A stretch of DNA of 64,000 nt from Fusarium oxysporum f. sp. lycopersici 4287 (lineage: Eukaryota; Ascomycota; Sordariomycetes; Hypocreales; Nectriaceae): positions 328,039-392,038 of the forward strand of contig NC_030996.1 of assembly GCF_000149955.1 (NCBI RefSeq), given 5' to 3'. The position numbers and the translations under genes were made by a program. The stretch's first letter is position 1. Each line of letters opens with the position of its first letter. Under the pieces are notes generated by a model. It saw nothing but the letters and a program-made list of their open reading frames with translations. It ran no database searches and was not told the DNA's origin. Shown here one piece after another: positions 16,368-49,189 of the stretch.

Positions 16368-18910
16368 ATGAGCATCTCTGAGAAGGAGACCAAACCGGAG
16401 AGCCCTTCTTCCAAGGCGGATATCTATCCTGCTGATGAGAAGAGGGGTCTTCCTCAGGATGACAAGAATGTTCATGATATTGAGATCATGTCTTCTGATA
16501 AGGTGAAGCAGCCTCTTGAGACTGCTGAAGATATCGTCACACATGTCATTCAGGTCGATGATGACCCTACTATGAACCCATGGACCATTCGCATGTTTGT
16601 CGTTGGTTAGTTGACTACCTATTCTTGTGATGTAATATGCTGATGGGTGATAGGCATTGGATTGTCTGCCTTTGGTGGTGTCCTCCAAGAGATCATGTAC
16701 TTCAAGCCCCAGGTCGTCTACGTCTCCGTCATGTTCTTGACCGTCCTCGCTGAGACGCTCGGTACCGGTCTCGCTCACATCATCCCACGCTGGGGTCGCA
16801 TCGGTCGTCTTCTCAACCCTGGTCCCTGGAACAGAAAGGAACATACCGCCGCTGTGCTCATGGCATCAGCTGCATCGGTCTCAGCCTTGTCCACCGAAGC
16901 ATTGACTGTCCAGAAGCTCTGGTATGGCGGTTACCCCGACCAAGCAGCCGGTATCTTCATCACCTTGTCGTCTCAGCTTATCGGATATGGTGTTGCTGGT
17001 ATGATGAGAAGTGTTCTGTTGTACCCTACCAAGATGCTGTACCCTGCCAACCTTCCCATCACGACTGTCATGGAAACTTTGCATAAGCCCAAGTCAGAGA
17101 CCAGGAAGAGATTCCAAGTTTTCTGGATTGTCTTTGTTGCCATCTTCTGCTGGGAGTGGTTCCCCGAGGTTAGTGAACCAACTCAGGTTCATCAAGTCAT
17201 GCTGACAATAGTAGTACATCTTCCCTCTCCTCTCCGCTGTCTCCGTCTTCTGCCTCGCCGACCGTCACAACCCCGTCTTCACAAACCTCTTCGGCGGCTC
17301 ACAAGGTAACGAGGGAATGGGTTTCCTGAGCATCTGCTTCGATTGGAACTACATCGCCGGCTTCGGCTCACCTCTCTGGATGCCCCTTCAGACACTCTTC
17401 AACAGTTATCTTGGTTACATCGGTGGTATCGCTCTGTCTATGGGTCTCTACTATGGAAACTACTGGCGCGCAAAGGACTTCCCCTTCATGGCCCAGCTCC
17501 TCTACGATGGAAGTTCCAACACTACCAGCCATATTCCTTACAACGAAACTGCCATCATGAACCCCGACTTCACCGTCAATAATGATCTCGTCGACCAGCA
17601 AGGTCTTCCTTACTTGACCGCTACCTACATCAACTATCTCATCACTTCTAACGCCGGTCTCACTGCCACAATCGTGCACATGCTTCTCTGGAACTATGCT
17701 GAAGTCAGCCTGGGATGGGCCTGGATCACGGTCGCCAACATGAAGAAGCTTCTTCGCCCTGAGACATACAAGTTCTGGCAGCATGTCGGTACCCGCACCG
17801 AGGAAGAGAAGCAAAAGCTCCGCGACGACCCCTCCATCGACCCTCATTACAAGCTCATGCTCGACTACGACGAGGTTCCTAACAGTTGGTACTTCGTCAT
17901 CCTTCTCTCCAGCATCATCATCGGATTGGCTTGTTTGTATGCTATGAAGTCGACTCTCCCGTGGTGGGGCTTCATCTTGGCCATCATCTTCCTCGTAGTC
18001 TTCTTGATTTTCTTCGGCGCTCAGTATGCCATCACCGGATTTGGTTTCAACCTTCAGCCTATCTTCCAGATGTTGGCTGGCTACATGTTCCCCGGTCGCC
18101 CTCTTGGTAAGGATATCACCATCATTTGCTTTGTCCACAACACTGACCATCTTAGCCAACATGTACTTTACTTCGTACACCTACAACGCTCTCAGCCAGG
18201 GCTTCCTCCTCCTCCGTGACTTGAAGCTCGCTCAGCAGAACAAGCTCTCTCCCAAGGCCACCTTCACTACTCAGGTCATTGGTTGTATCCTTGGTGCCCT
18301 TCTCAACTATGTCATGATGATCAGGTAAGAGTCTATGAACTATGGACCTCGACATTTGAAGCTGACTCGGTGTAGCATCGTTGACAATCAAGCCGCCATC
18401 CTCAAGTCCGCTGAAGGTACCAATGTTTGGAGTGGTGCGCAGGTCCAGCAGTTCAACACCCTAGCTATTGCCTGGTCCATCGCCCCCAAGATGTTCTCCA
18501 TCGGCGCTCGTTACGAATGGGTCACCATCGCCTACCTCATCGGCTTCGCCGCTCCTCTCCCCTTCTACTTCGCTCACAAGTTCTTCCCTCACATCCGAAT
18601 CTTCTCTTACCTCAACATTCCCATCATCCTCTGGTACCTCGGTTACCTTTTCGTCGGTCTGAACGCTTCAGTCACCAGCTACTTCATCCTTGGGGCCTTT
18701 GGTCAGTTCTACCTCCGACGATACCGCCCTGAGTGGTTCGTGAAGTGGAACTACCTGATCTCTGCTGCTCTCGATGGTGGTACCCAGGTCATGGTATTCA
18801 TTGCGACTTTTGCTGTCTTTGGTGGCTCTGGAAAGTCGGTTCCCTTCCCAGCTTGGGCAGGAAACAAGGTGGACAACTTTGACTACTGTGCTTTTAATGC
18901 GAACAGTTAG
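16368..18910 (+). CDS. OPT-family oligopeptide transporter
   Basis: Exons 16368-16605, 16654-17169, 17216-18106, 18156-18324 and 18376-18910 join in frame to 782 residues. Introns are 45-51 bp. A cytosolic, acidic N-terminus ends in the family signature VDDDPTMNPWTIR, followed by about 12-16 hydrophobic segments. The NPG motif (LLNPGPWNRKEHT), the YPTKMLYPANLP loop and the PLANMYFTSYTYN segment are typical of plasma-membrane proton-coupled transporters of tetra- and pentapeptides or glutathione-like substrates. Uptake of peptides released by secreted proteases such as the fungalysin encoded 8 kb away is the likely use, although co-regulation is inference. All key motifs are intact. Confidence 0.95.
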
Positions 18911-19338
18911 ATTAGGAGAGTGAGGGAATGGCGAAGGAATGGCGAAGGAGAGGTCATATTAATAGCATTTCAAAGCACACTAGTGAATAAATGACTTTCA
19001 TTGTTGAAATCTCTGGACTTACAATCTGCTCACTGTCATGACCTGATCTCAATCTTGGAAAGCCTTTCGATAAACTGAAAGGCTCATCATGTGGGTAGTT
19101 GGGGGTAGTTGGTATGGTACCCGGGTGTGTTCTATAAATGATGTTTGCACCGCGCAGCAGTAATATAGTCAATAAGCTTTTTGGAGCTCTATAGTATTAG
19201 TATAATAACTAGATTACAGCAGTAAGATCAGACCTCAGAGCCAAGTAGCAGGACCTTAGCGCCTATATATATAACACCAAATATCCTTGCCGATACTAAC
19301 AGTTCGAACTCGCAAATGAGGTCCCCCACTGAATATCG
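18911..19338. other. intergenic
   Basis: About 430 bp after the OPT gene, turning A+T-rich (19140-19300). It marks the edge between conventional genes and the unfamiliar block that follows. I searched it by eye for a terminal inverted repeat and found none. Confidence 0.35.
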
Positions 19339-20215
19339 GAGGGGAATACAGAAGTCAAGCAGGCAGATCATCTAACGGCAGAAGTCGGCGATAACAACTC
19401 TGTCAAAAGTACCGCAAACTTGGACTCTCCTCAATCGAATTTTCACTTTACTGACCAGCTAGACAAACTGGAGATCTTGAACGAAGAGTCGATCGTGACG
19501 TCGAACCATTAAGCCGAACTCGTGAGTCTCCTCTGGTCGGAACGAAAACCACAAAGCTGCTTTCACTTTTTCTGAGGACGATGGCGCTCCTTCAGCCCCC
19601 GAACGAAAACCCTGCTCCCTCACAATGCTCTTTTCCGATGAGAATGGCGAATCGGCGTGTCCTCAACCGACTCGCGCTTTAGATGGGGAGAAGATCACAT
19701 TAACTCATCCTACCAAGACTACAGGCAGGAATTTCGAGTTCGAATTTAGCAGCTTGTCTTAAAGCGAGGTATGTGACGGAAATCCTGGTGGTTATCTTGG
19801 TCTCGCGTCTTCTCCGCCTGTCCCTGAAGTCCTCAGCCGACAAGAGGCCACCGACTCCAAGAATACAAGTGGTACCCTTAATAATGTTATCGATGAAGCA
19901 GTGTGCCCTGTGGTACCGGAAAACCCCCCGCAACCAAGAGAATTCGACATCACAGTTCGCGAAGAAAAAACAGACAGACGTTTCGAGTTCGACTTCAGCG
20001 ATTTGGTCGACCCTAACGCAAAAGTAATCAAACCAGCATCGAGTCTGCGCGATTCGTTTACTAATCTGCCCTGTATTTTGACGGAATAGAAGACGTTGAC
20101 TAAGAATCCAAACGATACCCCTGGTGACGTTGGATATGAGGCGGATGGCTCTTTTGAGTTGACAGACCTAACAGCTGATGTTTGGGTCACGGGCCTTACC
20201 TTGTTTAATTGGTGT
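19339..20215 (+). pseudogene. decayed ORF with repeated FxF-acidic motifs
   Basis: Plus-strand reading shows coding-like pieces in changing frames with stops between them. Each piece ends in an aromatic-acidic motif: FHFTDQLDKL (about 19441), FTFSEDDGAP (about 19563), LFSDENGES (about 19628), NFEFEFSSLS (about 19730), RRFEFDFSDLVDP (about 19979) and SFELTDLTAD (about 20150). This looks like a gene for an acidic repeat protein broken by frameshifts and stops. I do not recognise the family. It lies just beyond the end of the 883-residue gene and could belong to the same block. It could instead be a multi-exon gene I cannot splice, but several stops are internal to the repeated motif sequence. 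Confidence 0.4.
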
Positions 20216-20915
20216 TTCTATTAGGGGTAGACCGACAGTTCTCTTTAGACTAAAAGCACGCTTCCTTCGCAGACTTTAAGACAGTGGCATGTAATTTTAG
20301 TCGGTCGCTATCATCGCCAATCTCTGTATTAGCGCGAACGTTTAGATAAGGACAACGAAGGAACGACGTAGGAGATTTCGTCTGATGACGGATTGGTAAA
20401 CATCAACCACTATGGAAGACGGATTCTCGTATTATTGGTCCTGTGGTATTTTCAACCTATGGTATATTCGATCTGTTTATGGAATTGAAACCCATTAATT
20501 ATACAAGCCCGTTTTATGTGTTGTCACAGCATATCGCAGACCCTTTGCCATAATCACTACATCTGCCAGATCGCGAAGCGAAGTTGCCAGATGTATATAT
20601 AATACTCCTGGCATTTTGAATCGCACGACAGACGGAAATTATTGGTTAGAACCTGTCACCAAATTAATAGAGACAGATTCGAGATTTGACAAGAAATATG
20701 ATGTGGTAGCAATGTCGGTCTGCATTGTCTGGCTATATAGCTATTGATATAACCTCTTGCCCTTTCCCAGACCACAAACCATTACCAAAAGCTTCCCATC
20801 CTTCGTCCCATCGGCCTCCATGTACTGCTTCGCAAACCATAAGCTGCCAGATATTGCCCTCATGCCATAGCCTGTCTGTCACCAAAATCCGAGATCCGTC
20901 TCACTCTTCATCAGA
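20216..20915. other. intergenic with TCTGCCA-type motifs
   Basis: About 700 bp downstream of the 883-residue gene, A+T-rich and without coding signal. TCTGCCA occurs at 20572, with the related TTGCCAGAT and CTGCCAGAT nearby (about 20593 and 20851). The same motif occurs in the tandem repeat between the two divergent genes. Confidence 0.35.
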
Positions 20916-23621
20916 CTAAGGCTGCTCTCCGCCAGCCTGAGGTTCCTCCTCGATGGAAAACATGCCACTCCATTCGCCATACTCTTCGTCGGTCAGAGTC
21001 TCTTTATACCATTCATTTCGTTTGCCCAAAAAGGCCTCATCTGGAGCGCAACGCTCCATGTTCAAGAGTGCGACCAGGGCCTTTCCGCCCCGGGTAATCG
21101 CCAGGCGTTGAAGTGAATCCCAGTCGTGGTTGTTACAGGCCTCTTGGTCGGTCTGATTGATGGGATGACCTGCCTCCTTCGCCGTATGGCAGACCGAGTT
21201 TGCCATATCCTTCCAATCTGAGATCTCGTCATCGCGCATTCGCCAATGACTCTTGAGAAACAGGACCAGCTGGTCCGCTGATCCGTCTACGGTCGGGGTC
21301 TTTAAAGCGTTTTGCATATCCGCTTCGAGCGCCTCTAATCCTTTCTCTCTTGCTGTCTGCGCAGGATCGACTCGAGACCGAAGTCGGGTCTCGTTAGTCT
21401 CAAATGCGGCGTTCAGAGTTGCCGCAGTGACAGACGAAGATTCACGTAGCTTGGCTACGCTTTGGGCCATGAGCGTATGGTTGTCGATCTCGTGGTCTCG
21501 ACAAGCAAACAGTCGGTCTGTATGCTGCTTGATTAGGACAGCTGTTTTTTGATGAGCCTTTGGTAGGCTCAAAGCCGCGGTCTCAATGGCCCGGATTGAC
21601 CGTCGGGCTCTATCGGTCTCCACGTTGAGGATTTCTTGGCTAGTGTCGTCTTCCACCTCTACCTGTGGGAGGATGGGGGCCTCAAGTAATCTCGAGTCCA
21701 GGTTGAAGTCCTCCGACTTTGCCCATCGGTTGAGGACATTGCGGCGAGCCTTAGAGATAAGTGGGAAGATCTCTTCTGTGACCTCTTCCTCGATCGTCGA
21801 CCCAAACATTTCCTTCGTGCTTTCTGGGTCCATCAGCTGATCTAGCCAATGCGCATTTCGTCGGTCCCATTCTTCCGCTGTGATTACCTTTGTAATCGGT
21901 GCTGTTGGCAGAGTCGGTTGGAATGGGTAAGGCTGCATAAATCCAGTCGGTATCTGCTGAACGTTTACGGCGTTTGCTGGAAATGGCTCTGGAACGGCTT
22001 CAGAGAGCTTCTTGCGCTTTTTGGTCTGTGCCTTGGTCGACTTTGGAACCGGCAGATCAAGCGGCACTGATTCCTCCTCGCCTCTTCTTCCAAGCATGAG
22101 GAGCTGGCCTCGCGATCCCTTGCCCCAAGAGATCGTTTCGCCCAGCTCAATCGCCGACCGCAAGTGGTTAAAGACATGAAAGCCACCGATGATGGTGATT
22201 CCACGTCCGTTCGGCTCCCCATATGCATCGGGCCTCAAGTCCATCGCCGCGATCAGGCAGAGGATTAAGTCGGGCGCCATCGTCAAGACGTAGTGAGGAT
22301 ACCGCGCACTTGCGGCGCGTAGCAGATCTGCTTCGGTGTTGATACGCTTTTGTGCGCCCCAGCCAGAGAAGACCTTGGCCTGGAAGAAGTTGGTGCTGCT
22401 GATATATTTTACAGCCATGTTGAAGATGACTGGGTATTCGTCCGAATCAAGGCCGACTGTTCGCATAGCGTAGTGGATCATGAGCTGGAAGGTCTTGATT
22501 GGCACTTCCTTTTTTGGTTTGCCTTGCTCAAGGTCTGCTCTATCCTTGACCGACGGTTTTGCCATCGTGTTGTGATCTGGCTTCGGACCTTTGCTTACAA
22601 TCTCGTCGGTGTCCCCGATGTGGATGTGAGCGGGCACCTCCCCATCCTTCAATATCCCAGCTTCGTCTTCGCCCAGTCCCTCTTCGAGCTCATCTGTGGG
22701 ATGGCTGATCTTCTTGGAACCCGTGACTTTGAGTTCCCCATCGGTTGGTTTTTTGGGCGGTCTAGGTAGATGCTTTTCGTCGTCGGTCTTTTGTTCCTCA
22801 TCATCCGAGTTCTCAGGTTCGTCGCTTAGTTCGTCCAATAAGTCGTTGAGTGCGTCGCTTGATCCGCCGCTGTCGCTTGATTCGTCGCTCAGTGACTCGT
22901 CATCTGAGTTGATTTCAATTGGTTCGGACGGACCTTTCTTGTCGGTGTTGGTCTTCTTGAGCTGCTTGGGATTGCCCCCTTGTTTCGTAGGTGGCTTCTT
23001 TCGCTTCTTGCTGTCTGTCATTTTCTTTGATGAATGAGTCTCCTCCGGCTGTGTAGAGTTTGCCGGACCCAGGAGTCTTGAGGGATTCTGTTCCTGATCT
23101 GTACTGGAACTAAGAGCGCCGGTCGGCTTGGGACGGATAGGCTTGTTTTGCAAACGAGAGCCACGGGACGAAGGAGGGCTTGTGGGCACCAAGGGAACAG
23201 CAGACTCGTCGTCGGCATCGGAAAGATTGAGGAAAGCAGCTGCTAGGGCTGCATCGGGCTCGACGTGATCCATCGGTTCGGTTTGTTGTGTCGGATTCTC
23301 TTGTTCGTCAACCTTATCGGAAAGATCGTGAGCAGGTGTATGAATCGTATCGGGCTCGACGTGATCCATCGGTTCGGTCTGTTGTGTGAGGTCCTCTTGT
23401 TCGTCTGATTGGTTAGTAAAGACAGATTCTCATTGAGGGGAGTACCAGTTTGCGATACCTTCTGCAGAGTTCTTTGTCGGCGAAGCTGAATTGTTGTTAT
23501 TGTTGGTATCGTTTGGTGCCGCATGTGTGGGCGCTGGGGTCCCGCTGCTTGACTCCGAGGTCTGATCTTGCTGCTGCGATCTAGACGTCGCGCCGATGCC
23601 GCAGTACTTTAAAAAGTTCAT
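20916..23621 (-). CDS. large acidic orphan protein, 883 residues
   Basis: Exons 23459-23621 and 20916-23404 join across a 54-bp intron (GTATCG donor, TACTAAC branch site, ATCAG acceptor) to 883 residues in frame. The intron is supported because exon 2 then opens with a copy of a 32-residue unit that is repeated directly afterwards. Residues 1-55 are Ser/Gln/Asn-rich. Residues 56-330 are acidic and Ser/Lys-rich with nuclear-localisation-like runs (KKRKKPPTK). A compact region begins near EVPIKTFQLMIHYAMRT and continues to GRGITIIGGFHVFNHLRSA. A helical C-terminal half follows. I recognise no domain. It is divergent from the 24565 gene and probably shares its promoter. A role in the nucleus or in an element's own biology is inference only. 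Confidence 0.75.
23251..23404 (-). repeat. 96-bp coding tandem repeat in the 883-residue gene
   Basis: The sequence starting at 23251 recurs at 23347 with a 96-bp period (32 codons). In protein it gives two copies of a unit beginning EQE and containing TQQTEPMDHVEPD. The copies differ at few positions, so the duplication looks recent or homogenised. Confidence 0.8.
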
Positions 23622-23849
23622 TAACCGAGTCGCCTTGATCTGTAGATTATATAAATGAAGTGTTATTATATTATAATAAGATGCGCGTTGTGGGTGACCG
23701 ATCCAAGTCACGTACTGATGTGTTGGAGATGTTGCGGGAGGCGAGCTTTTGGTGTTGAGAGAAAGTGGGTCACTGAACAAGATATAGGAGCAACCAAAAC
23801 AACATCTCCTGGATTACCGTTCGTCCTCGCGTCGCTTAGTCTCGCCGAT

Positions 23850-24262
23850 GGAATTCAAGTCGACTATGCCGCAGATTTTGGCAGACCAACGAGACATCGA
23901 CAGACCGGACAAAGATCGATGTTCGCCTGGCATCTGCCAAATATATTTTCAAGGAGACAGCCGATCATCCTGGCGTCGTGTAATCTCTGAAGCGTGCTTT
24001 TGAGCAAATCGAAGGAATTCAAGTCAACTATGCCACAGATTTGGCAGACCAATGTAACGAGACATTAATAGACCGAATAAAGATTAATATTTGACTAGTA
24101 TCTGCCAAATATGCTTGCAGAAAGACAGCCGATCATTCTGGCACCGTACAATCTCTGAAGCGTGGATTTAAGTAAATAGGGGGCATTTAAGTCAATGATG
24201 CCGCTGAAGTTGGCAGTCTCATATAATGAGACATTAATATATCAGATAAAGACCGATACTTC
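23850..24262. repeat. 2.5-copy tandem repeat, period 164-168 bp, in a bidirectional promoter
   Basis: Units begin at 23850, 24014 and 24182 with a common GGAATTCAAGTC-like opening, and the third is truncated near 24262. The first two each carry an inverted pair TTTGGCAGA ... TCTGCCAAA (TGGCAGA at 23879 and 24042, TCTGCCA at 23933 and 24101). The third keeps TGGCAG at 24211. Units 2 and 3 differ from unit 1 largely by C-to-T and G-to-A changes (for example TCGAC to TTAAT and CGCAG to CACAG), the pattern expected of repeat-induced point mutation. The repeat lies between the divergent genes at 23621 and 24565, so it may be a regulatory or origin-like array. Confidence 0.8.
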
Positions 24263-24335
24263 TAAAGAGACTCCTGGCCACGGCTTTCACGGGTTCATTG
24301 AGGTATGTACACGGGCGAGGTGGTGTCGGGTGGGT

Positions 24336-24349
24336 TGGGTCGTGACCCA
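24336..24349. promoter_or_regulatory. inverted repeat TGGGTC-GT-GACCCA
   Basis: A perfect 6-bp inverted repeat with a 2-bp spacer, about 215 bp upstream of the ATG at 24565 and within the same divergent promoter as the tandem repeat. The form suits a dimeric DNA-binding protein. No known factor is assigned. Confidence 0.35.
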
Positions 24350-24564
24350 GGTCTGCTCCTTCCCCCTGAAGACGACACATATTGCATCACGAAAAGAATT
24401 CCGTCAACCTTTTTCCTGTTCGTTCTCGCAACGATCGACCGAGACTCGACAGACGATATAAGAATTAACTCCAGACCACTACCTTGCAAAAGACAGATCC
24501 GCAACGGACGCAGAAAGAAAGCTTTTCATCAATTAGTGCAGTTACTCCGACAGATCCCCTTGGC

Positions 24565-26157
24565 ATGGCTTCGCTAGACACCAACCGATCTCCGCAGCCG
24601 ACGACTTCACGAAAGCGCAGACATGCTGCATCCAATGCTTCCAAAGCTATATCGGCCTTGATCGCCGATCCATTCAATGATGAGGCGCCAGATCCCACCC
24701 CGGCCACTCCTCCAAGCAAGAGGCGCATAGCACAAGACGAATCCCCCTACACCAATAACTCCTCCTTTGCCGACTCATCAGCAGACGAATCTTCACCCGC
24801 GCCGACGGAGAGCTCTCCTATTGATAGCGAGTCCTCGGATGAGAGTAGTGCTGTTGCGACAGGCGGCACAATCACCGTCTTGTCCGCCGATCCAATTGAA
24901 AACCGACTACATCCACTCGAACCGACCGCATCCAATCTCCACACCGTCGCAGCAGAAGTCGGCCTGGTTGAAGATCCAATGGAGTTTATCTATGCACTAG
25001 AAATACAGCCAGGAAGAAACTACCAGCCTCGTGTTGTGGACAGCGAAGGAAGACTCAATGTAGACCATCCCCTACACAGAGCAGATGGCTGGGTTCTACA
25101 AGCAGAGCAGCTAGGTGAAGATGGGGCCAGGCGTTTTACTCGACTCGACAAAGATGTCTTCAGCTACGAAGAATCCATGCAAATCTGTGAGAGGCTCACA
25201 GATGCCCTCAACAGATGGCCAGATCTTGACGCGATCTCGGTCGGGGGAACGGGCACTTTAAGAAGACGGTACGCAGTACGGATTCTTTTCAGAGCAATAC
25301 AGAATAAACTCTTCCCAGACCGACCTCTTCTATACCATCCACCAAGCCTTGTCTTATTCAAGGCACAGAAGAGTCGCATCGGTCATCACACAAATATTAC
25401 ATTCGATGTAATAAACCCCAGCACACTGAAGGCAGAACAGAGCACTTGGTCATTTCATCGTCAGATGTTTGAGACAGGATTAGCAGCTCATGTTATTCCG
25501 GAACCAAAGAACGTCATATTTTGTCATATGCCGCCGCTTTTCCCATCTTCCTTCAAGACTTTGACCGATCAGCCAATGGACTTAACTAAGGTGGCGGATC
25601 TCAACGACGAAGCTGGCTACCAACGTGCTTACCAGATCGGAAAGTTCATCACTAGTCTTTGGCTAAGGACAAAGTCTCCCTTTATAACCCGCGCCGAAGT
25701 GGTTGACTTTTGCCGAGAAACTGTGAAGCCATTCGCTCCTCGTCCATCTCCATGGAAAGTGCACCGATCTGCTGTATCGCGATTCATTGAGATATCACCA
25801 CGGATTACAGAGGAACACCCGACCTTTGTCTTTAAGCAGATCACAATTCACGGATCAGACTTTTTCTGGCTGCGCCCTGTTATTCAAGCCGGGCAGGATG
25901 CATTAGCAAAAACGGGTGACCAACGGAAGATGTGGCAGGCACGTAGTGAGCCGCAGACCTTGCCAACCAATAGATCGCGGCTGGAGTCTCTCCAACCAGC
26001 TTATGCTCTTGCAAGATGGAAGAGAAAGCCACCAAGCATCATACCTGCGGCGTTTGTGGCATTGAAGCCCTCTGTGGCTCTCTCCACCTTGACTATTCGT
26101 CGGGCCTCCGGGTATGCAACACTTGCGGTAAACGAGGGCATCAAGTCTTCTGACTAA
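24565..26157 (+). CDS. orphan protein with possible GATA-like C-terminal zinc finger
   Basis: The open frame gives about 530 residues from the ATG at 24565. Residues 1-110 are Ser/Pro/acidic with an NLS-like SRKRRH and SKRR. From about 130 to 450 it is a well-formed globular region (DPMEFIYALEIQPGRNY, LTDALNRWPDLDAISVGG, AYQIGKFITSLWLRTKSPF) that I do not recognise. After about residue 480 the frame becomes unconvincing. The -1 frame at 26019-26150 instead encodes CGVCG ... LRVCNTCGKRGH, a CxxC-x19-CxxC pattern like a GATA finger, ending at a stop near 26150. An intron (for example a GTGAGC donor at 25946) or a one-base frameshift must join them, and I cannot decide which. It is divergent from the 883-residue gene. 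Confidence 0.65.
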   Translation: MASLDTNRSPQPTTSRKRRHAASNASKAISALIADPFNDEAPDPTPATPPSKRRIAQDESPYTNNSSFADSSADESSPAPTESSPIDSESSDESSAVATGGTITVLSADPIENRLHPLEPTASNLHTVAAEVGLVEDPMEFIYALEIQPGRNYQPRVVDSEGRLNVDHPLHRADGWVLQAEQLGEDGARRFTRLDKDVFSYEESMQICERLTDALNRWPDLDAISVGGTGTLRRRYAVRILFRAIQNKLFPDRPLLYHPPSLVLFKAQKSRIGHHTNITFDVINPSTLKAEQSTWSFHRQMFETGLAAHVIPEPKNVIFCHMPPLFPSSFKTLTDQPMDLTKVADLNDEAGYQRAYQIGKFITSLWLRTKSPFITRAEVVDFCRETVKPFAPRPSPWKVHRSAVSRFIEISPRITEEHPTFVFKQITIHGSDFFWLRPVIQAGQDALAKTGDQRKMWQARSEPQTLPTNRSRLESLQPAYALARWKRKPPSIIPAAFVALKPSVALSTLTIRRASGYATLAVNEGIKSSD

Positions 26158-26573
26158 AGAATGGTTCAAAGAATGGAGCGACATGTTCCATCGGACTGGA
26201 AATGAATGGCGAACTCGGTAATTATTCAAAGCCCCTGTTCTCCTCGAGGTGGGGGCACGTACTTATGATTATTCTTATGATGAGCTTGGGACGACTTTAG
26301 AATGACTTTTAGAAAATTACAGTATTATCATCATAAATTTATATGAGTTTAGGAGACGGCAAGACCCACTCTCCACTCAAAATAACCTGATCGCAAATAC
26401 AATCATCGAAAGCAGAGTCAGTTTCATGTACTTGCAATTGAAGTCAATATCAACATATGAGGATACTATGTACAACGCATCCATATATACCAAGAACAAT
26501 AAAGACATCACCTCAGTCTCCGACTCATAATCCATCATTCATTCATCCACTCATTTTCTTGACCTCTCACCCC
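26158..26573. other. intergenic, convergent 3' regions
   Basis: About 415 bp, A+T-rich, between the orphan gene and the fungalysin stop. I looked for an inverted copy of the 19.2-19.4 kb edge. Only the 7-mer CCCCCAC/GTGGGGG is shared, which is not evidence of terminal repeats. Confidence 0.35.
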
Positions 26574-28625
26574 TTAGCATCCAGAAGGAAGAGCGAAACT
26601 CTCGGTTCGGCTGGAAGCACTATACTTGGCACCTGTTCCAAGACCACGCTTGGCAAAGCCCTTCCAGATCTCGCACTTGTTAGCTCCCTTGGTAAGAGCG
26701 GTGTCGGCATCGATGATGGCGTCTCGGGCCTGGACCATGTTGGGGTTGCAAGGTTGCCTATTAAACGTTAGATAAGAACTCCTACACATCCCAGAGACAA
26801 CTTACAGCGACATTCCATCCACTACTAACTTCATAGCAAGATATTTGCCATCTGTGGGAACGCCGTTGTTGAATTTGGGTTCATCCGCATCATTCTTCCC
26901 GTGCTTGTCGATCAAGTTCCACATAACCTCATACAGGACAGTAGCCCAGTAAGTACCAATAGCATGGACTCCACTGAGGCTGTTAACACTCTTGTAAGTG
27001 TATGGGTTGGTGGTAAGGCTTGTGCTGTAAGGATACGCCCGGATACCGGCTGCGTTGTTGTACACCCAGTCACCCATGACCTTGTTGCTAGCGCGGGTAT
27101 CCTTGGATTGGATGTGAATGGCAGTAGCCATGAAGTCACCCCAGCCCTCGCCCATACCACCAGATTCACCACCAGGAAGACATCCAGAGTTGGCAGGGCC
27201 GCCAGTAAGACGGTTGGAGAGACCATGGGTGTACTCGTGGATGACAACACCAGCGTCGAAACTGCAGTCGCGCTGGGGTGTGCTGTAGGTCCAGAGGTAC
27301 ATTCTCATTCGGCCGGGCTGGCCGTCAGCTGGTGTAGCGAAGTTGGCGTTGTTGGTGCCACTTCCGTCCTGAGCGTTGAGGATAACCATATCGTTTCCTA
27401 CACCACCCTGACCATTGTTGTTGGTCTGGAAGTTACCAGCCTGTTCGGTAAAGCCAAGAAGATACAGGAGATCGTGGTACTTGTTGGCTGTGTAGAAAAG
27501 CTGGGCGATGGAAGCATCGCGGTAGGTGGTGGGTGTAGTCGTGCTGGTGGAGTAGTCATACTCGAACTTCAGCGAAGGACTATCAGGACGGTAATTGTTC
27601 AGATACGTGGAGCCCCCTGAAGGATTCACCTGTGCAATTCCATTGTTCCCGCGGGTTGTGGTGTAGTTGTTTGAGCCGTCGCTGAGCCAGGTGAACTCGG
27701 AGGCCTCGAGGTTCCAGGGGTTCTCAACAGTACTGCGAGATCCCTTGGAGGGATCATTAACACCCCAGGGGCTATAATAAACTGGTCAATTCTTTCCCAA
27801 TCGTCAATTTACGGAAATACGTACTAGACCTTGTATGTCGCCTCATTGACGTAGTCAACAACACCAACAACCTCATCAGTCTTGGCAGCATTGACATAAG
27901 TCAAAAGCCAGTTGTCAACAATATCAGTCTCAACTCTCCAGGTGAGCTTGAGTTCCTTGTTCTCATCAACGAGGTAGGTGAGCTTAGCCTCAGGCTTGCT
28001 AACAGTACCCTTGGTACCAGTGAAGGTGTAGTGGTTCTTGCTCTTCTTCTCAGCCTTGGCCTTCTCAGCCTCAACGGGGAGAGAAAGGACATCAACAGTG
28101 TCCTTAAGAGCGTCGACGGGGTCTTTCTCGTCACGCTTGGTAAGAGGGCCGGGAATCTTGCCCTCGTAGAAGCTGTTTCCGTAGGAGAAGACCTCGCCGT
28201 CAGCGCCAATCTGTATTCGTGTCAGTTTATCCCAGATCATCAAGGCACTTCGGAATTCTCACGTTGACGTTGAAATCAGCATTATCAATATCAATACCAT
28301 TGATAGTCTGCTTAAAGTGGATATGCGCAATTTTGTTGCTGCCAACATAATGATCGTTGACCATACGGAAAGTAGCCTTGGGGAAAGTTGACTTGACCAA
28401 GTCCTTGGCAGTCTCGGTGTAGTCGGCTCGCTTGGTGACGACCTTGGCACTGACATCATCAGGAACCTCGTCCTGAGGAACGTACTCGGCCATGGGAGGA
28501 AGCTTAAAAGCTTCCAGGTCGAGGCCACGCTTGCTCAGCGGTGAAGGGTTAGGAGCCCTTCTGCTGGGATGAGCACCAGCGAGGCTGGAGAGGCCGATGA
28601 GGAGGAGAGAGTCGGAGAAACGCAT
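26574..28625 (-). CDS. fungalysin, secreted M36 metalloprotease
   Basis: Exons 28263-28625, 27825-28210, 26806-27771 and 26574-26757 join in frame to 632 residues, the normal length of the family. Residues 1-18 form a signal peptide, then an FTP-type propeptide ([31 protein letters not shown]) precedes the mature protease, which starts near residue 250. The zinc site is HEYTH at about residue 428, with the third ligand in GMGEGWGDF. The protein is exported and self-activates by propeptide removal, then degrades host and environmental proteins. In Fusarium, enzymes of this class cleave plant class IV chitinases. All catalytic residues are present. The ATG at 28625 is chosen because the upstream in-frame codon is only a GTG. 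Confidence 0.95.
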
Positions 28626-29789
28626 CTTGATGAGTTGCACTGGAGTGAAGTGCTGAGTTGATGATGATGTTCGTGAATTTCAGATAGACATGCTCGAAAG
28701 ATCTATTATATACTTCTATAGTCTACAATACTTTGCTTCCAGTCGTCCACGCTTCTATCCAACTTCCCAATACAACCGGGACTTTTGTATATCTTGGCCT
28801 CGAATATCTAGAAGCTCATAACTATCCACTGACCTGTTCTGGGATATAAGCGCTGCAAGAAGGGTCTTTTGTCCAGGCACTATCTCACAAACACTACAGT
28901 CATGCGACATTGCTATCTGGGGTCACTTATTCCTGGCCATCAGTCCCGCTAAGGGTTAGCACGTCATCTTCGCAATATCTCGGCGGCAGCGAGATAGGAA
29001 GGTCTTCTCGGACAAACAACAGCCGAGGGACTAAACGGCTCGGGACGAACCATCGTAGATTTACAATTTGGGGAAAGGGTGCGGAGTGTATAGCCTGATT
29101 GGTATGTATGCGCCGAAGACTAGTAACTAGTCACTATTGCAAGCTTAAGAGTAAGGTTAAGCATGATAAACCTTCTTAGCACATCATCGGAGCATTTAGG
29201 GCGCTAGAAATGAAGTGGTGCAGTCATAGATATGATCATACTAGCATAGGGAATGAAAGGGCTGTGGACAAAAGACACTATCTACCATCCCAACACCACT
29301 ATCCAAGTAATCATGCCCCAAAAGGAAGTCCATAGTCCAGATCACTACACCGCAATATACTCTGATCTGCAAGATAAAGACGCCAGACTATTTCTGCACT
29401 CTGCAAGCGCCTCGACGGCCCCTGCGTCTTCTTGGCAAAGGTTCTTTTTAACGAACGACATCCGTGTGATCTACCACGACATCCCTGCATATCTGGGGAC
29501 CTTCCATGTTGGGCCATGTCTCCCGGCAATACCACCCTCAACGCGGAGACGGTGGGCCAATCAATTATCACTCCGCTGTTTATGACTTGCAGGAAGGTTG
29601 ATTGTTATCTATTGTAAAGAGGGGTAGTTGGGGAGCTGCGAGATTTATTAAGGCTTGCTTGGGTATGTGAACTGCCTTTTACATGCTTGTGCTATGATGT
29701 TCAGATTGATATCATCCCGCTTTTGATATGGAAGGTAGTATTGCTTGTTAAGTGAGTGCATCACGCGTGTATTAACAAGTCAGTGACAC

Positions 29790-33969: not shown

Positions 33970-35844
33970 ATGCACTTACATCATGTACAGCTACCTCCTT
34001 CATTCATACCCTATACAATCACTGGTGCCATACCCATGCCCAGGATGAGAGGTCCAACCCCTCCAACTTACCCTCCCACTCCGTCGCCTTTGCAGAGGAA
34101 GAGAAAGGCCAGTGATGCGGTTCCGAAAAGCGAAAACGACCATCAGTCACAGACGCTTCCTCCTTCACCCAAACGGACTCAACGCGAATTATCATTCATC
34201 AGCATCTCATCAGGCGGTCATGAAGACGCCCAGCATGACCAATTGGCACCCCCCGACGATCGACCAGTCATCAACACTGAACCAGAGCTTTCTGATGAGC
34301 AGAAACACCTGCTCGACACCATTGTGAGCGGCAGACACAATGTCTTCTTCACTGGCTCAGCTGGCTGCGGCAAATCAACCGTTCTCAAAATCGCCATCAG
34401 TCGATTGAGGGCACTAGACATGGACGTTAAAATCTGCGCACCTACAGGTCGTGCAGCTGTGCAAATCGGCGGCACGACTACTTATTCTTACATGGGATGG
34501 TCGCCTGCCTTTATCCAAAAAGGGATAGCCGCGCTCCGGGAAATTACATTCAAGAACAAGACCACTCGTAAGCGTATCAGAAGAACAGAGGTACTGATTA
34601 TCGATGAGGTTAGCATGATCAGCAGTGATTTCTTAAACTGCATGAATGAGTGCTTGAAATATGTGAGAGCGGACAAGCGACATTTGCCCTTTGGCGGCAT
34701 TCAGGTCATCGTCACTGGGGACTTCTGCCAGCTCGCCCCTGTCAAACCTTTTCAGTACTGCTATTTTTGCGGTGCCCAGATGAAGTACAATAAGGCGGAG
34801 GGCATGCATAGTTGTCCCAAATCCAGGGACCACGGGCCCTGGGCTGACGAGGACAAATGGGCATTCAGAAGCAGGGCTTGGGCTGAGGCCAACTTTACCT
34901 GTTTCAACTTGAGAGACATTCATCGTCAGAACGACCCCACTTTCATCAAAATCCTGCAGAAATGCCGATTTGGAATCCCCTTCACTGAAAACGATATAGA
35001 CCTCCTCATGAATCACGACTGTGAAGTTGAAAACGCGCCACAGCTCCTCTGCACCAGAGAAGAGGTTGACCCGATCAATCGCACCAAGTTCCAAGCAATC
35101 ACAGAATATAAGCCGAAGCGATACACAGTTCTTGAAGGCTTTGATTGGAATGGGATACTGAAATGGGAGGATGTTAAGTATAGCAAGACGTCTGAAGACG
35201 GCACATTGGCTGCACACAAGGAACATCAACTCGACCCGGTCGTCGACCTCAAGGAAACAATGCAAGTCATGCTCCAAGTGAACCTCGATATCAGAGCTGG
35301 ACTCGTCAACGGAAGTCAAGGCGTTATCTGCGGCTGGGAGAGAATCGACATGGCCATACTACCGGCACTCCAAGGCGAGTACTCAACCGACAGAGAAGGC
35401 CTCGTCCGAGCCTTCACTGCAAAACACATACAGCTTCACCCCGATAAGAGAGATCATGTCTGGCCACGCGTGCGCTTCAGCAACGGACGTACCCGTACAA
35501 TCTATCCCTGGTGTGTGATGAACCCGGTTGGTGATATTAGGCCTTACTCTTTCCTGCACCGAACACAAATTCCGCTTGTACCTGGTTGGGCTATCACCAT
35601 TCACAAGAGCCAGGGCATGACTCTCGAACGTGTCATCGTCAATCTGAGTAGGGCTTTTGCAGAGGGGCAGGTATACGTTGCGTTATCGAGGGCGACAGGT
35701 CTTCGTGGTCTGAAAGTAGAAGGCAACGCGCGGGGAATAACGGTGGGAGAAGGGGGGAATGCGGAGGTTCGTCAGTTTCTTGCTGACACTTTTGGTACTG
35801 AGATGTTTGAAGAGCTTGAGGATGAAGAACCCGATGAATCGTAA
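33970..35844 (+). CDS. PIF1-like DNA helicase
   Basis: Intronless, 624 residues from the ATG at 33970. A second possible start is at 34036 (MPRMRG). Walker A is GSAGCGKST at 129-137, Walker B is VLIIDEVSM, and later superfamily-1B motifs include GDFCQLAPV, the TIHKSQGMTL segment and VYVALSRATGLRGL at the C-terminus. It should unwind DNA 5'-to-3' in genome or mitochondrial maintenance. The N-terminal 100 residues are Pro/Ser/basic and disordered. An insert after the GDFCQL motif has CYFCGAQ ... CPKSRDHGP, a possible zinc-binding CxxC-x14-C-x5-H. Stand-alone PIF1-like genes of this type are multicopy in Fusarium, so a mobile-element origin is possible. No Rep domain of a Helitron is seen. Confidence 0.9.
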   Translation: MHLHHVQLPPSFIPYTITGAIPMPRMRGPTPPTYPPTPSPLQRKRKASDAVPKSENDHQSQTLPPSPKRTQRELSFISISSGGHEDAQHDQLAPPDDRPVINTEPELSDEQKHLLDTIVSGRHNVFFTGSAGCGKSTVLKIAISRLRALDMDVKICAPTGRAAVQIGGTTTYSYMGWSPAFIQKGIAALREITFKNKTTRKRIRRTEVLIIDEVSMISSDFLNCMNECLKYVRADKRHLPFGGIQVIVTGDFCQLAPVKPFQYCYFCGAQMKYNKAEGMHSCPKSRDHGPWADEDKWAFRSRAWAEANFTCFNLRDIHRQNDPTFIKILQKCRFGIPFTENDIDLLMNHDCEVENAPQLLCTREEVDPINRTKFQAITEYKPKRYTVLEGFDWNGILKWEDVKYSKTSEDGTLAAHKEHQLDPVVDLKETMQVMLQVNLDIRAGLVNGSQGVICGWERIDMAILPALQGEYSTDREGLVRAFTAKHIQLHPDKRDHVWPRVRFSNGRTRTIYPWCVMNPVGDIRPYSFLHRTQIPLVPGWAITIHKSQGMTLERVIVNLSRAFAEGQVYVALSRATGLRGLKVEGNARGITVGEGGNAEVRQFLADTFGTEMFEELEDEEPDES

Positions 35845-40441: not shown

Positions 40442-43400
40442 TCAGGGCACAGAGTCATCGTGGACTTCAGTACTCCAAATAATACGACCTGCTTCCTCGA
40501 TCGGACATGCACTGACTCGAATTGCTTCTAGAAAGTGACCGTGGCTGACGGCGTTCAATGGTTTAGTGAGTCCGTCTGCTACCTGCTCATGTGTGCTGAC
40601 GTATTGCACATCAATATTCCCGGCTTCAACTTCTTCTCGGATATGGTGCTCGGTTAACGGAATGTGCTTTGTCCGTTGGTGAAGCTCAGGGTTTCTGCAT
40701 AGCTTTAGGGAACCCTGGTTGTCGCCGTTCAGTGGGATAGGCATATGTAGCGGAAGGAGCAGTTCAGAGAAGAGGTTCCTAGTCCAGGCCAATTCTCTGG
40801 CACACTGGGAGAGTGCTGTATATTCAGCCTCGGTAGTCGATAGTGCCACTGTTTCGTGCCGTTTGGCCCTCCATGAGACTGTAGATCCTTCAAGTTGAAC
40901 AAGCCATCCAAACGTCGATCTTCCCGTAACAGTGTCGCCTTTCCAATCCGAGTCGGCCCAAGCTGTGATGCTCCAAGCGGATTCAGGATCTTTCTTGACG
41001 CCCCCAAGCACCAGGCCGTGGTCTCTTGTCTGCTGTAGATAGCGGAGACCTCTTTTGATCATTCGTGAATGTGTTGGTGATGGATTCGACATGTATCTTG
41101 AGAGTACCGAGAGTAGGAAAGCTAAATCGGGTCTGGTTTGGGTCATTCCATACATCAGCGAGCCGGTTTTCGAGCTATAGTCTTCTCGTTCTTCTGGAGA
41201 AGCCGAGTCGCCATTGTCTCTTGGTTGCAGTGTCGAGAGTGAATTTCGCTCCATCGGGGTCTTGACCGGTCGACAATCCTCTAAGCCGAATTTCTTCAGT
41301 ATTCTGGTAAAATATGCATCCTGGGAAAGGTAGATCAGCCTTGAGTTCCTGTCTCGGGTTATTCTTACTCCAAGAAAATGGCTGGCGGGACCGAGATCAG
41401 TCATTGTGAAGATCTCTCCCAGGCGGGCTTTGTACCCTTGGATTGCTTCCTTGTTGCTGCCCATGATGAGGAAGTCATCCACATATGTGATGATGATCAC
41501 TCCCGTTGTGGGATTGTGATATACGGGCCGTGTCAGACGGTAACTTGTCGAAAGTCAAGGGATTCCAAGGCCTCCTTCAGCTTCTTTTGCCATTGCCGAG
41601 GCGCCTGTTTGAGTCCATAGAGGGATTTGATCAGTTTGCAGATCTTCTCGGTTGAGAATCCTGGCGGANNNNNNNNNNNNNNNNNNNNNNNNNNNNNNNN
41701 NNNNNNNNNNNNNNNNNNNNNNNNNNNNNNNNNNNNNNNNNNNNNNNNNNNNNNNNNNNNNNNNNNNNNNNNNNNNNNNNNNNNNNNNNNNNNNNNNNNN
41801 NNNNNNNNNNGACAGGCAGCAACGGTGAGGAGGATTCTCCAAGTCGCCGCTTTGGCAACAGAGGCAAAGGTCTGGTTGTAGTCAAAGCCGAACTGTTGTT
41901 CAAAGCCTCTGACCACCAGCCGCGCCTTGAACTTGTCGAGGTTGCCGTCCTCGTTTTTCTTGACCTTGAATACCCATTTGACGGTAAGTGGCCTATTGTG
42001 AGCTTGGTTGCGGTCCAGCATGCGCCAAGTTCCTTTCGTGAGGAGACTGCGCAGCTCACTGTGTATTGCTCTGAGCCAATGCTCCCTTTGCGGACCTTGA
42101 AGCGCTTCAGTCATTGTTTTGGGCTCAGTGATCACCTCTTTTCGGAGATCGGGCAGCTTAGCTGATGTCATGGATGTTGTCGTCTGTCCATGCTGAGGAT
42201 TATGCACCTCAGCATGCTGAAGATTGTTCACTTCAGACCTTTGTGGCCTTGGAGTCTTTGTCTGCTCCGTGACGGACTGTGGCCGGCTTGAGATGGGAGC
42301 TCCGTTCTTGCGGATTTCCGGCTCAACATCATGCTCAGTTTCGGTCAGGAGTTCTGTCTCCCCAACCTTTTCGTAGAATTGTACATTTGCAGAACGGACG
42401 ATCTGATGTCCCTTCCTGCGAGAGGGCACCCAGCAGGTGTAGATCTGTGAACCTTCCATGCATAGGTAGATTCCAGCCTCTCCTCTTGGGCCAAACTTGT
42501 GTGATCTCAATCTTCGTTCCTGCGGTATGTGTATCGTGACTTGTGAGCCGCAGATTCGTTCTCCGGACAGATCCGGCTTGTTGTCTTGTCCGGGGAAGGC
42601 CTCGTTGAGAAAGCTTTCCATGGGAGTGAGGCCATCAATTGCCCTGGTGGCTGTCACGTTTGTCTTGCGCACCATATCTTCCAGGACCAATGGCCAGAGC
42701 TCTATCGGGATTCTTTCCGATTCCATGGTTGCTCTGACTTTGTCAAAGATGATGCGGTTAGAGCGCTCAGCAACTCCGTTAAATTCAGGAGTATATGGTG
42801 TCGTCTTGATGATCTTGACGCCGTGAGTGTACTCGAGGTTTTTGAGAGACGCACCATAGAGCTCAGAGCCGCCATCCATTTGGATTGCGTACACTCGGAT
42901 GCCATACTGAGTTCGTATCTTGGAGATGAGCTGGCCTAGAAGTTCCGAAGCCATCCCCTTCCTCGTGAACGTGTAGGCCCATCTCATTCTATGCCTGTCA
43001 TCTGTGGCAATCATTCCCCATCGTTCGCCTCTAATGCCCGGTGGATTGACTTTGAAGGTGTCAACATGAATGAACCCGGCCCTGGAGGCTCGTTTCCGTT
43101 TATTTCGCGGAGTCCATCGTAGGGCCTTTGCGATGTCGCAGGCGAGGCAGTAATTGAAAGGCTGATGGTCGTGGTGGCCGTCACAGTACATTCCTCTGGT
43201 CATTTTGGCAGTCTGTGACACCTGATATGCGTTAACATGGCCGAGTCTTCGGTGCCAAAGGTCGACATTCAGGCATTGGTTTGATGAAGCAGTGTGATGA
43301 TTGCATGGTTCTGGCTGGAGTTCCGAGACGGCCTGGTTTGAAACAGTAGTCTTTCCGACCTCAGTGTTCACGTACAGACCGTCCCTTCCTATGCGGAGGA

Positions 43401-44566
43401 GACCAAAGACATCTCCTGTTGGGTCGTACATGTCGTTCCCGTCTATCCAGCCGCCGTTCTTGTATAGCCTGAGTCCTGACATGACATTTACCGGAAACTC
43501 AGGGATGAACAGCGTGTCTTTGAGGTTAATTGTGACCTGCTCACCCCATTTGTTTATGAAGCAAATTTTGACTGTCCCCTTACCGAATGGGTACACCTTC
43601 CCACCGCCCGTAACGAGGACCGTTCGGGTTGCAGGCTGCAGTTCTGTGAATAGGCTTTGGTCGTTGCAGATGTGGACTGATGAACCTGTGTCGAACAGCC
43701 ATTCTGCGGTTGAAGAGATGTTATCAAGGGAGACTTTACACGTCTCTGTATTGTCCATAGGTAGCTCGTCTGAGACGCTGTCTTCAAGAATCAGAAAAGA
43801 TCGCTCAACTGTCATGTGATTTGATTCCTTGATATGGAGATTCTTGGTGCTGTCGCGTTGAAGATCATGCTCCATGAGTTCCTTGGCGAGACGGACTGCC
43901 CAGTCGGGTCGCTTATCCTTATGGGCGAACCAACAATCATTTTCATGATGTCCTCTCTTCTTGCAGTTCGTGCAGGTATGTTCCTTGTTCTTGCCGACTC
44001 GATGATTGGTTTCCTGGCTAGACTTGTTCGCGGCTCGCTGGTTCTTTGAAGATCCTCTCCTCCGGCCACTTGCCTCTTGCTTTCTTGCGGCCGGGCCCTT
44101 CCTTCCAGTCTTTTTACTGTGAGCCCAGTACGTGGAGGCAGTACCATGACTGTCATCATCATCTGATGACCTGTTTTCATCAATGAGATCTTGCTGCATT
44201 GATCGTAGTGTTGGCGGATGCTCCGAGCGTAGGAGAGCGCGCTGTCTGGCAGTCCAGTCAGGGTACTCGTTCTCGCAGGCAGTCAGATAAACAACCTTTT
44301 TGAGGGTATCTGAGATTGGTTCTTTCTGCTCGAGGAGAAGTTTGACGAGTCGTTCAAAGTCGACATTAAATTGTGGAATTGTCTCGTAAGAGCTTGTTTT
44401 GATCCGGATGAACTGGTAAAGTGTTGTCTGCAGAAGAACTGGGCCCGTGCCAATACAATAGGCCTGGAGAAGGTTGAACATCTCCTGGGGATTCTCAATC
44501 CCGACTAGTTGACTGAGTGCTTCTCCAGTGCAGTTACCTCGGATGGAGACGGCAGCTTTTGCCGCC
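40442..44566 (-). pseudogene. Copia gag-pol polyprotein, gapped and frameshifted
   Basis: The frame is open into the gap at 44567, so the true start is not visible. In order on minus there are a gag region, a CCHC knuckle (CTNCKKRGHHENDC, near 43950), a protease motif DTGSS (near 43690), an integrase HHCC (LWHRRLGH ... CLACD, near 43240-43130) with its DDE part, the [12 protein letters not shown] (near 41600), the YVDD motif (near 41480), and RNase H STTEAEY (near 40830). The frame ends at a TGA near 41533 and coding resumes in another frame (RPVYHNPTTG before YVDD), so one base seems lost near 41540. Given the gaps this may be an assembly error or a true inactivation. Confidence 0.88.
41669..41810. 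other. assembly gap (N) inside reverse transcriptase
   Basis: 142 N between VAAC on the upstream side and PPGF on the downstream side of the Copia RT. The frame is kept across it, so its size is plausible, but the hidden sequence cannot be described. Confidence 0.95.
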
Positions 44567-48049: not shown

Positions 48050-49189
48050 ATGGCCGATGCATTCGTCGAACAAACCCCGGGTGGTGAGCGAAGCCATGCC
48101 TCACATGAGCCACCAAACATATCCCCAAGCAATGGCAGTTCGGACGTTAGTCCCCAAGCTTATGATGCTTATGCTCCACCCACTGGAATAGGCTACACGG
48201 CTACGTCTGCACTTCCAGTGCGAATGCAGAATGAGGCGGGCTTCTACAAGTCCTTCATCGTTGAAGATGTCATGAATGGAGTGTATGACAAAGCTTCAAA
48301 CTCCAACAAGATCAAGAAGCCGAACTGGCCTCGGGGAAACTTCGAATACTTGCACTCACCACGTAGAGATGTCTTGGGTACCTTTGCCAGTACTTCAGTT
48401 TTCTACAATGACACTGAAGACACCGGTGGCAACACATACATTGACTCGCCAAGCCCATTTGCTCATAATGATGGGCAGAGTACCTACAAGTGGTACACTG
48501 AAACAGACCAGAACGTCTATCTGGCTTTCAACATCAAGTCCCACAAATACATCTTTGTCGACCCAACGCTGCCCATCAGAGCACTCTATTTCCTCCAAAT
48601 CTTCCAGGACCCCAGCTATCCGGGGTTCAACAGACCTAGCACCGTTCAGTTTCACAAGTTCTCCGCGCAAGGCTTGGCCCTAAGGAACTACTGGGACAAT
48701 GACCCCATTCATTTGGACATCACCAACAGCCGGGGACTTGGTTACTCTGGAGCAGCTCTCTGCTTGATGGCATCATTGTGCATTCCAGACGATAGAGTCG
48801 CCCGCCGCGCCGATGGCACGCATATCTGCTTTGACTCTATCTGGCTACTTCGAGAAGCAGCCTCGCCCAACGCGGAAGACCGCTCCGTTTGTCAGTGGGA
48901 CTCGGGAGACTTCCACAGAAAGGGCAACGATTGGATGTCGATAAACGAAGGCATTCGCTTCGTCTATGCGCCCCTTGATAAATCTGCATGGTCAACCTTT
49001 GCCAAGCAGATTGTCGGAGCAGGATTGGGTCTGATTCCTATAATGGGTCCTCTCCTGGCACTTAACTGGGACATCATGTACTCATACTTGGAAGACCCGG
49101 CAGGTTTTGCCGACTATGCCAATATCGGTAAAGATTGGTTAGCTTTTTTGAAGCTACAGGCAGCTGAACTCAAGAAGGCAATCAAGTAG
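48050..49189 (+). CDS. orphan protein of 379 residues
   Basis: Intronless. Residues 1-50 are polar and Ser/Pro-rich, probably disordered. A globular part follows from about MQNEAGFYKSFIVEDVMNGVYDKA to the end, with aromatic-rich segments (TYKWYTETDQNVYLAFNIKSHKYIFVDP, YWDNDPIHLDITNSRGLGYSG). A hydrophobic stretch near residues 325-345 (IVGAGLGLIPIMGPLLALNW) could be a membrane-active helix pair. No signal peptide or family is recognised. Amphipathic glycine-rich hydrophobic hairpins of this kind occur in some pore-forming or membrane-inserting proteins, but that is only a resemblance. Confidence 0.75.
   Translation: MADAFVEQTPGGERSHASHEPPNISPSNGSSDVSPQAYDAYAPPTGIGYTATSALPVRMQNEAGFYKSFIVEDVMNGVYDKASNSNKIKKPNWPRGNFEYLHSPRRDVLGTFASTSVFYNDTEDTGGNTYIDSPSPFAHNDGQSTYKWYTETDQNVYLAFNIKSHKYIFVDPTLPIRALYFLQIFQDPSYPGFNRPSTVQFHKFSAQGLALRNYWDNDPIHLDITNSRGLGYSGAALCLMASLCIPDDRVARRADGTHICFDSIWLLREAASPNAEDRSVCQWDSGDFHRKGNDWMSINEGIRFVYAPLDKSAWSTFAKQIVGAGLGLIPIMGPLLALNWDIMYSYLEDPAGFADYANIGKDWLAFLKLQAAELKKAIK

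What the first reader, a model, noticed from the sequence alone, without database searches (positions are those of the whole stretch)
19339..26157. Unfamiliar block of two divergent large genes plus a decayed third
Seen: an 883-residue acidic protein on minus and a ~531-residue protein on plus share one intergenic region with a tandem repeat, and a decayed FxF-rich ORF lies next to them. None matches a family I know, while genes on both sides (OPT transporter, fungalysin) are ordinary. Inference: this may be an inserted module or an undescribed element with its own regulatory array. I found no convincing terminal inverted repeats.
Basis: partly seen in the sequence, partly recalled or inferred. 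Interest (0 to 1): 0.8.

Follow-up and report, generated by a model that had tools for sequence, protein, structure and literature searches.

The report
Fast-changing Fusarium gene pair, partly decayed
This stretch holds one intact gene and broken remains of others from two protein families seen so far only in Fusarium fungi, between ordinary genes; it looks like a rapidly rearranging gene cluster rather than a new mobile element, and one of the families shows strongly different versions that cross species borders.

Summary
The minus gene (family A, 883 aa, one 54-nt intron) is intact and 879/883 identical to a F. oxysporum hypothetical protein. The plus gene (family B) is broken: it leaves its relatives' frame near 25.95 kb and homology ends at 26147, while a relative has 985 aa. 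The "decayed FxF ORF" (from 19168) is an inverted relic of a second A lineage. The "regulatory" tandem repeat is about three copies plus a fragment of a GMC-oxidoreductase gene lying 27 kb away, intron edges included. A and B have no significant Pfam, NCBIfam or PDB match; 21 of 22 A and 4 of 4 B relatives are named Fusarium (one A is unnamed). One copy of each was found in this genome, apart from relics. In F. oxysporum LZL87 the OPT gene (98.7% identical) is annotated as fused to an A-family gene. One F. oxysporum B protein shares its first 150 residues with a conspecific but its body with F. xylarioides (180 sites against 12). Best reading: a Fusarium-restricted, haplotype-variable cluster evolving by duplication, inversion, recombination and decay. 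An allorecognition-type locus is attractive but untested; a mobile element is not supported.

The parts
20916..23621 (-). Family A gene, intact, 883 aa; exons 23621-23459 and 23404-20916; acidic (17% D+E in the exon-2 ORF) with basic KKRKK patches and a conserved core
   Evidence: 22 homologs
24565..26157 (+). Family B gene, broken: out of frame with relatives from about 25.95 kb, homology ends at 26147; relatives have 645, 653 and 985 aa; the last 244 residues are identical in P0001 (strain Fo5176)
19168..20170 (+). Relic of the 5' part of a second A lineage (A2 type, P0020/P0024/P0025), inverted relative to gene A; carries two FEFxFS motifs
   Evidence: 0 of 300 shuffles reach the score; tblastn supports it to 19942, the rest to about 20170 is read by eye from PGDVGYEA against PGDVGDEA
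23770..24315 (+). Shared intergenic region: four pieces (23770-23960, 23961-24124, 24129-24258, 24256-24315) copied from a GMC-oxidoreductase gene (C11:324867-325158), intron edges included; not a regulatory array of the pair's own
26170..26220 (+). Possible relic of the C-terminal part of an A-family gene (RMERHVPSDWK*MANSV), just after the point where B homology ends; suggestive only
   Evidence: 0 of 1000 shuffles, but 1 of 994 other window tiles reaches the score; a competing, non-colinear DNA alignment at 26149-26193 is reached by 7 of 1002 tiles
16368..18910 (+). Flanking OPT oligopeptide transporter; 663/672 compared residues identical to its ortholog in strain LZL87
26802..28640 (-). 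Flanking fungalysin (M36) metallopeptidase, ORF pieces; true 3' end not determined

Best explanation
The block is a small, unstable cluster of two fast-evolving protein families (A and B) known so far only from Fusarium, between conserved neighbours. Shown: A is intact; B is broken, in the same way as in strain Fo5176; an older inverted A paralog is a relic; the shared intergenic DNA holds decayed pieces of a nearby GMC gene; in another strain the same OPT gene is annotated as fused to a different A lineage; B proteins exist in strongly different versions, one of which has the N-terminus of its own species and the body of another's. Inferred: the locus changes by duplication, inversion, unequal recombination and decay, leaving strains with different haplotypes. 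Inferred and weak: A and B act in the nucleus (basic NLS-like patches by eye in both; a conserved C-x-C-x11-C-x2-C-x5-C-x13-C-x2-C cluster in three of four B relatives), and the diversity may be kept by selection, as at fungal allorecognition loci. In this strain probably only A could still act, because the B reading frame lacks the cysteine cluster and the C-terminal half.
For: A relatives: 22 with E<=0.001, 21 named Fusarium and 1 unnamed. B relatives: 4 distinct proteins, all Fusarium. OPT 663/672 compared residues identical to P0025, against 44.7% (relic) and 48.8% (gene A) for the A-family parts of the same protein. Linkage elsewhere: P0021 (F. denticulatum), an A protein, matches residues 801-976 of B relative P0026 at 72.5%; F. 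xylarioides A and B carry tags H9Q70_008217 and _008207. P0010 and P0021 carry a second A N-terminus behind A. Cysteine cluster in P0002, P0003 and P0026, not in P0001 or the window frame. B mosaic: residues 1-150, 24 sites join the two F. oxysporum proteins, 3 join P0003 with F. xylarioides; residues 151-650, 12 against 180; Fisher p 5e-20. A tree (23 rows): one clade for the 10 F. oxysporum-complex rows rejected (AU p 0.003), one clade for F. xylarioides P0006 and P0018 rejected (p 6e-37).
Against: No function was shown. Both structure models failed (mean pLDDT 36.4 and 28.7). The B mosaic rests on three proteins, and its boundary was chosen after seeing the counts; the tested clades were named after the tree was seen. 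Allele, paralog and introgression cannot be told apart without the genomic places of P0003 and P0026. The fusions in P0005, P0021 and P0025 may be annotation artefacts, though they still show neighbourhood. No DNA of relatives was at hand, so dN/dS was not measured. The homolog searches scored only the roughly 8000 candidates sharing most words, so relatives outside Fusarium may be missed.
Confidence: 0.65

Rival explanations
1. A two-gene allorecognition (vegetative incompatibility) locus: linked A and B products of unlike haplotypes react in fused cells, and selection keeps divergent haplotypes across species.
For: Sharp boundary next to OPT; a B body shared across species but divergent within species, with a switch near residue 150; different A lineages beside OPT in two strains. 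Known loci show such features: het-B, a pseudo-allelic pair with trans-species polymorphism (PMC10890737, passages); A. fumigatus het genes with a narrow footprint (PMC11138114, passages); linked cwr-1/cwr-2 haplogroups (PMC9550227, passages).
Against: No significant match to any known recognition or cell-death domain; B is broken here and in Fo5176; allele status unproven; no phenotype data.
Confidence: 0.15
2. A decayed two-ORF mobile element of an undescribed kind that jumped into an older A-family gene next to OPT.
For: An A2-type relic lies on the left and a possible A C-terminal relic on the right, both on the plus strand, as if an A paralog had been split; intact B relatives carry a cysteine cluster.
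Against: One copy of each found in 61 Mb apart from relics; no inverted repeats at the edges; no significant match to a mobility protein; the right relic is weak (1 of 994 tiles reaches its score).
Confidence: 0.12
3. Ordinary orphan genes under little constraint: lineage-specific genes that duplicate and die, with no special selection.
For: Several copies are broken here (B, the left relic, the C12 relic), and nine of the 22 A relatives (P0011-P0019) are shortened as annotated, 518-620 aa.
Against: A is open over 883 codons and its relative P0004 stands for a 90%-identity cluster of 19 sequences; long A proteins occur in F. verticillioides (946 aa) and F. xylarioides (807 aa), with P0004 residues 351-500 at 78-96% identity per 50-residue block; simple drift does not predict the B mosaic.
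Confidence: 0.3

Closest known systems
Fusarium hypothetical proteins FOMG_13487 (A), FOMA001_g14721 / FOQG_13911 / H9Q70_008207 (B)
   Same: Direct homologs: A 879/883 identical; B 98% identical over residues 1-466 of P0002
   Different: Window B is broken and truncated; the sources call them hypothetical or uncharacterised
Podospora het-B (Bh/Bp) and Neurospora cwr-1/cwr-2
   Same: Two closely linked genes with strongly divergent haplotypes; trans-species polymorphism at het-B (PMC10890737 and PMC9550227, passages)
   Different: Those have known domains and shown incompatibility; A and B have neither
GMC oxidoreductase gene at about C11:323.7-325.8 kb (L021)
   Same: Carries the sequence of the intergenic repeat, 76-80% identical piece by piece
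   Different: The window copies are short, multiplied, non-coding fragments; whether this gene itself was the source is not shown

Membership tests
DNA transposon / mobile element | terminal inverted repeats or other defined ends | tested here: not met
   no repeat shown pairs the two block edges (of 34 direct-repeat families 20 were shown); target-site duplications not tested
DNA transposon / mobile element | several dispersed copies | tested here: not met
   one copy each plus relics; counts of this tool are lower bounds, and the search with full-length B did not complete
DNA transposon / mobile element | transposase, recombinase or other mobility protein | tested here: not met
   no significant match; distant homology cannot be excluded
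Fungal allorecognition (het/vic) locus | known cell-death or recognition domain (HET, HeLo, NLR, patatin, as named in PMC10890737 passages) | tested here: not met
   some known het genes lack such domains (recalled), so this lowers rather than excludes
Fungal allorecognition (het/vic) locus | trans-species polymorphism of alleles | tested here: inconclusive
   the B body and the A tree cross species borders, but alleles and paralogs cannot be separated
Fungal allorecognition (het/vic) locus | incompatibility reaction between haplotypes | not testable with these tools
   needs strains
Regulatory repeat array of the pair | repeat without another origin | tested here: not met
   units are pieces of a GMC gene; a secondary regulatory role is not excluded

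The most novel reading that the evidence does not exclude
A and B form an undescribed type of fungal self/non-self or genetic-conflict locus in Fusarium: two linked nuclear proteins without any known recognition or death domain, kept as ancient haplotypes that cross species, with B's body as the specificity part and a shared, exchangeable N-terminus.
Probability: 0.13. Interest if true: 0.8.

Novelty: new member of a known kind. Interest (0 to 1): 0.4.

Why it matters
It turns an apparent new element into a tractable case of a lineage-restricted gene cluster. Two orphan families can now be tracked across Fusarium, with a sharp change beside OPT and a clear recombinant B protein. If the variants prove to be balanced alleles, they would be candidate self/non-self genes in a genus of crop pathogens; that few or no such genes are known in F. 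oxysporum is recalled, not established by a call.

Tried and rejected
Mobile element: rejected as the main reading for lack of ends, copies and mobility proteins. Regulatory array: rejected. Viral or prokaryotic origin: no relative by tblastn in IMG/VR for A or B and none for A in the prokaryote contigs (27 pattern matches, none a relative); B was not scanned there. PHROGs and PADLOC gave nothing significant. Structure: both AlphaFold models were of very low confidence, so no fold search was made. A-B homology: the profile hit is only the B-like tail of P0021. A 50-bp match of 20152-20201 to C11:1927551 led nowhere. Point-mutation decay (RIP): weak support only. The composite index is 0.07 over 19160-20300 against -0.60 for the window, but a 500-bp slice of the fungalysin gene has -0.05; C>T plus G>A is 52 against 25 in the GMC pieces, yet 10 against 11 in the first piece; the relic-to-A alignment is mixed. 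For the right-hand relic two short, non-colinear alignments compete; only SDWK*MANSV is kept, as suggestive. Literature: five locus tags gave 0 papers; one search gave 0; I saw listings only (13 of 13, 10 of 17, 12 of 44 and 12 of 19 papers), and no title or abstract start shown is about these genes; three of the listed papers were then read in passages.

Left undone: a genome-wide search with the full-length B protein and one with the 48 kb ORF did not complete.

Full report
Where it is. The window is C11:328039-392038 of a 61.2 Mb, 71-contig genome. The nearest relatives of both proteins are from F. oxysporum; the genome itself is unnamed.

Gene A. The minus gene has a 54-nt intron and encodes 883 residues, 879 identical to FOMG_13487. 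A search with residues 250-817 of the exon-2 ORF gave 22 relatives, 21 named Fusarium (13 species by name) and one unnamed. No Pfam, NCBIfam, PADLOC, PHROG or PDB match is significant. In its own genome only a relic on C12 (27-28% identity, broken frame) and the inverted relic beside it were found.

Gene B. Four distinct relatives are known. Against P0002 the window is 98% identical up to residue 466, then continues in another frame up to 26147, where homology stops. The last 244 residues of P0001, from strain Fo5176, are identical to the window's, so this is not a private sequencing error. P0026 of F. xylarioides has 985 aa. The cysteine cluster C-x-C-x11-C-x2-C-x5-C-x13-C-x2-C is present in P0002, P0003 and P0026 but not in P0001 or in the window's B frame.

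The decayed ORF. The stretch from 19168 matches gene A's first exon in inverted orientation (score 105, 0 of 300 shuffles reach it, maximum 44) and then the FEFDFS-bearing part of the A2-type proteins P0020, P0024 and P0025. P0025 is an OPT transporter fused by annotation to such an A2 protein. In the pieces compared, its OPT part is 663/672 identical to the window's OPT. So in strain LZL87 an A-family gene follows the same OPT gene, on the same strand as the relic here.

The repeat. The tandem array and its surroundings (23770-24315) are four pieces of a GMC-oxidoreductase gene at C11:324.9-325.2 kb, 76-80% identical piece by piece, with intron edges copied as DNA (score 181 against a maximum of 45 in 300 shuffles). 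It is captured and multiplied gene debris.

Linkage and rearrangement elsewhere. P0021 of F. denticulatum is an A protein that runs into a second A N-terminus and then into a stretch 72.5% identical to residues 801-976 of the B protein P0026. F. xylarioides A and B have locus tags ten apart; that this means neighbourhood is an inference. P0005 starts with 149 residues that are 82% identical to the window's 48 kb ORF and continues as A. These may be annotation fusions, but they show which genes lie next to each other.

Evolution. The A tree with all 22 relatives and the window splits an A2 clade of five F. oxysporum rows from the rest; four of these rows fill under half of the columns. Holding all ten F. 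oxysporum-complex rows together is rejected (AU p 0.003). So is joining F. xylarioides P0006 and P0018, which by their tags (H9Q70, H9Q72) come from different assemblies and so could be alleles or paralogs (p 6e-37). B is more striking. P0003 (F. oxysporum) shares its first 150 residues with P0002 (24 sites against 3) but its body with F. xylarioides (180 against 12; Fisher p 5e-20; a final partial block with one further such site was left out). In 50-residue blocks from residue 151, P0003 is 70-98% identical to F. xylarioides, and P0002 is 40-82% identical to P0003. Between P0002 and P0003 the first 100 residues are 98% identical.

Reading. These facts fit a haplotype-variable cluster of two Fusarium-restricted families that duplicates, inverts, recombines and decays. 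They do not fit an active element. Whether the variation is kept by selection is open. The resemblance to het-B (PMC10890737), the A. fumigatus het genes (PMC11138114) and cwr-1/cwr-2 (PMC9550227), all read in passages only, is one of pattern, not membership.

Noticed in passing
48050-49189 (+): 379-aa ORF of unknown family (no significant Pfam match); residues 1-151 are 82% identical to the start of P0005, a family A protein of another F. oxysporum strain, so the two are neighbours there.
   Followed up: partly
40442-44481 (-): Copia-type retroelement ORFs (identified by eye from the translation); part of the stretch reads as withheld letters.
   Followed up: no
33970-35844 (+): PIF1-like helicase (PF05970, E 3e-26) in a 624-aa ORF; not tested for a Helitron context.
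   Followed up: no
L005:6236-7086 (C12:411.2 kb): Distant relic of family A (27-28% identity) with a broken frame, among unrelated genes; the family is probably older than the block here.
   Followed up: partly
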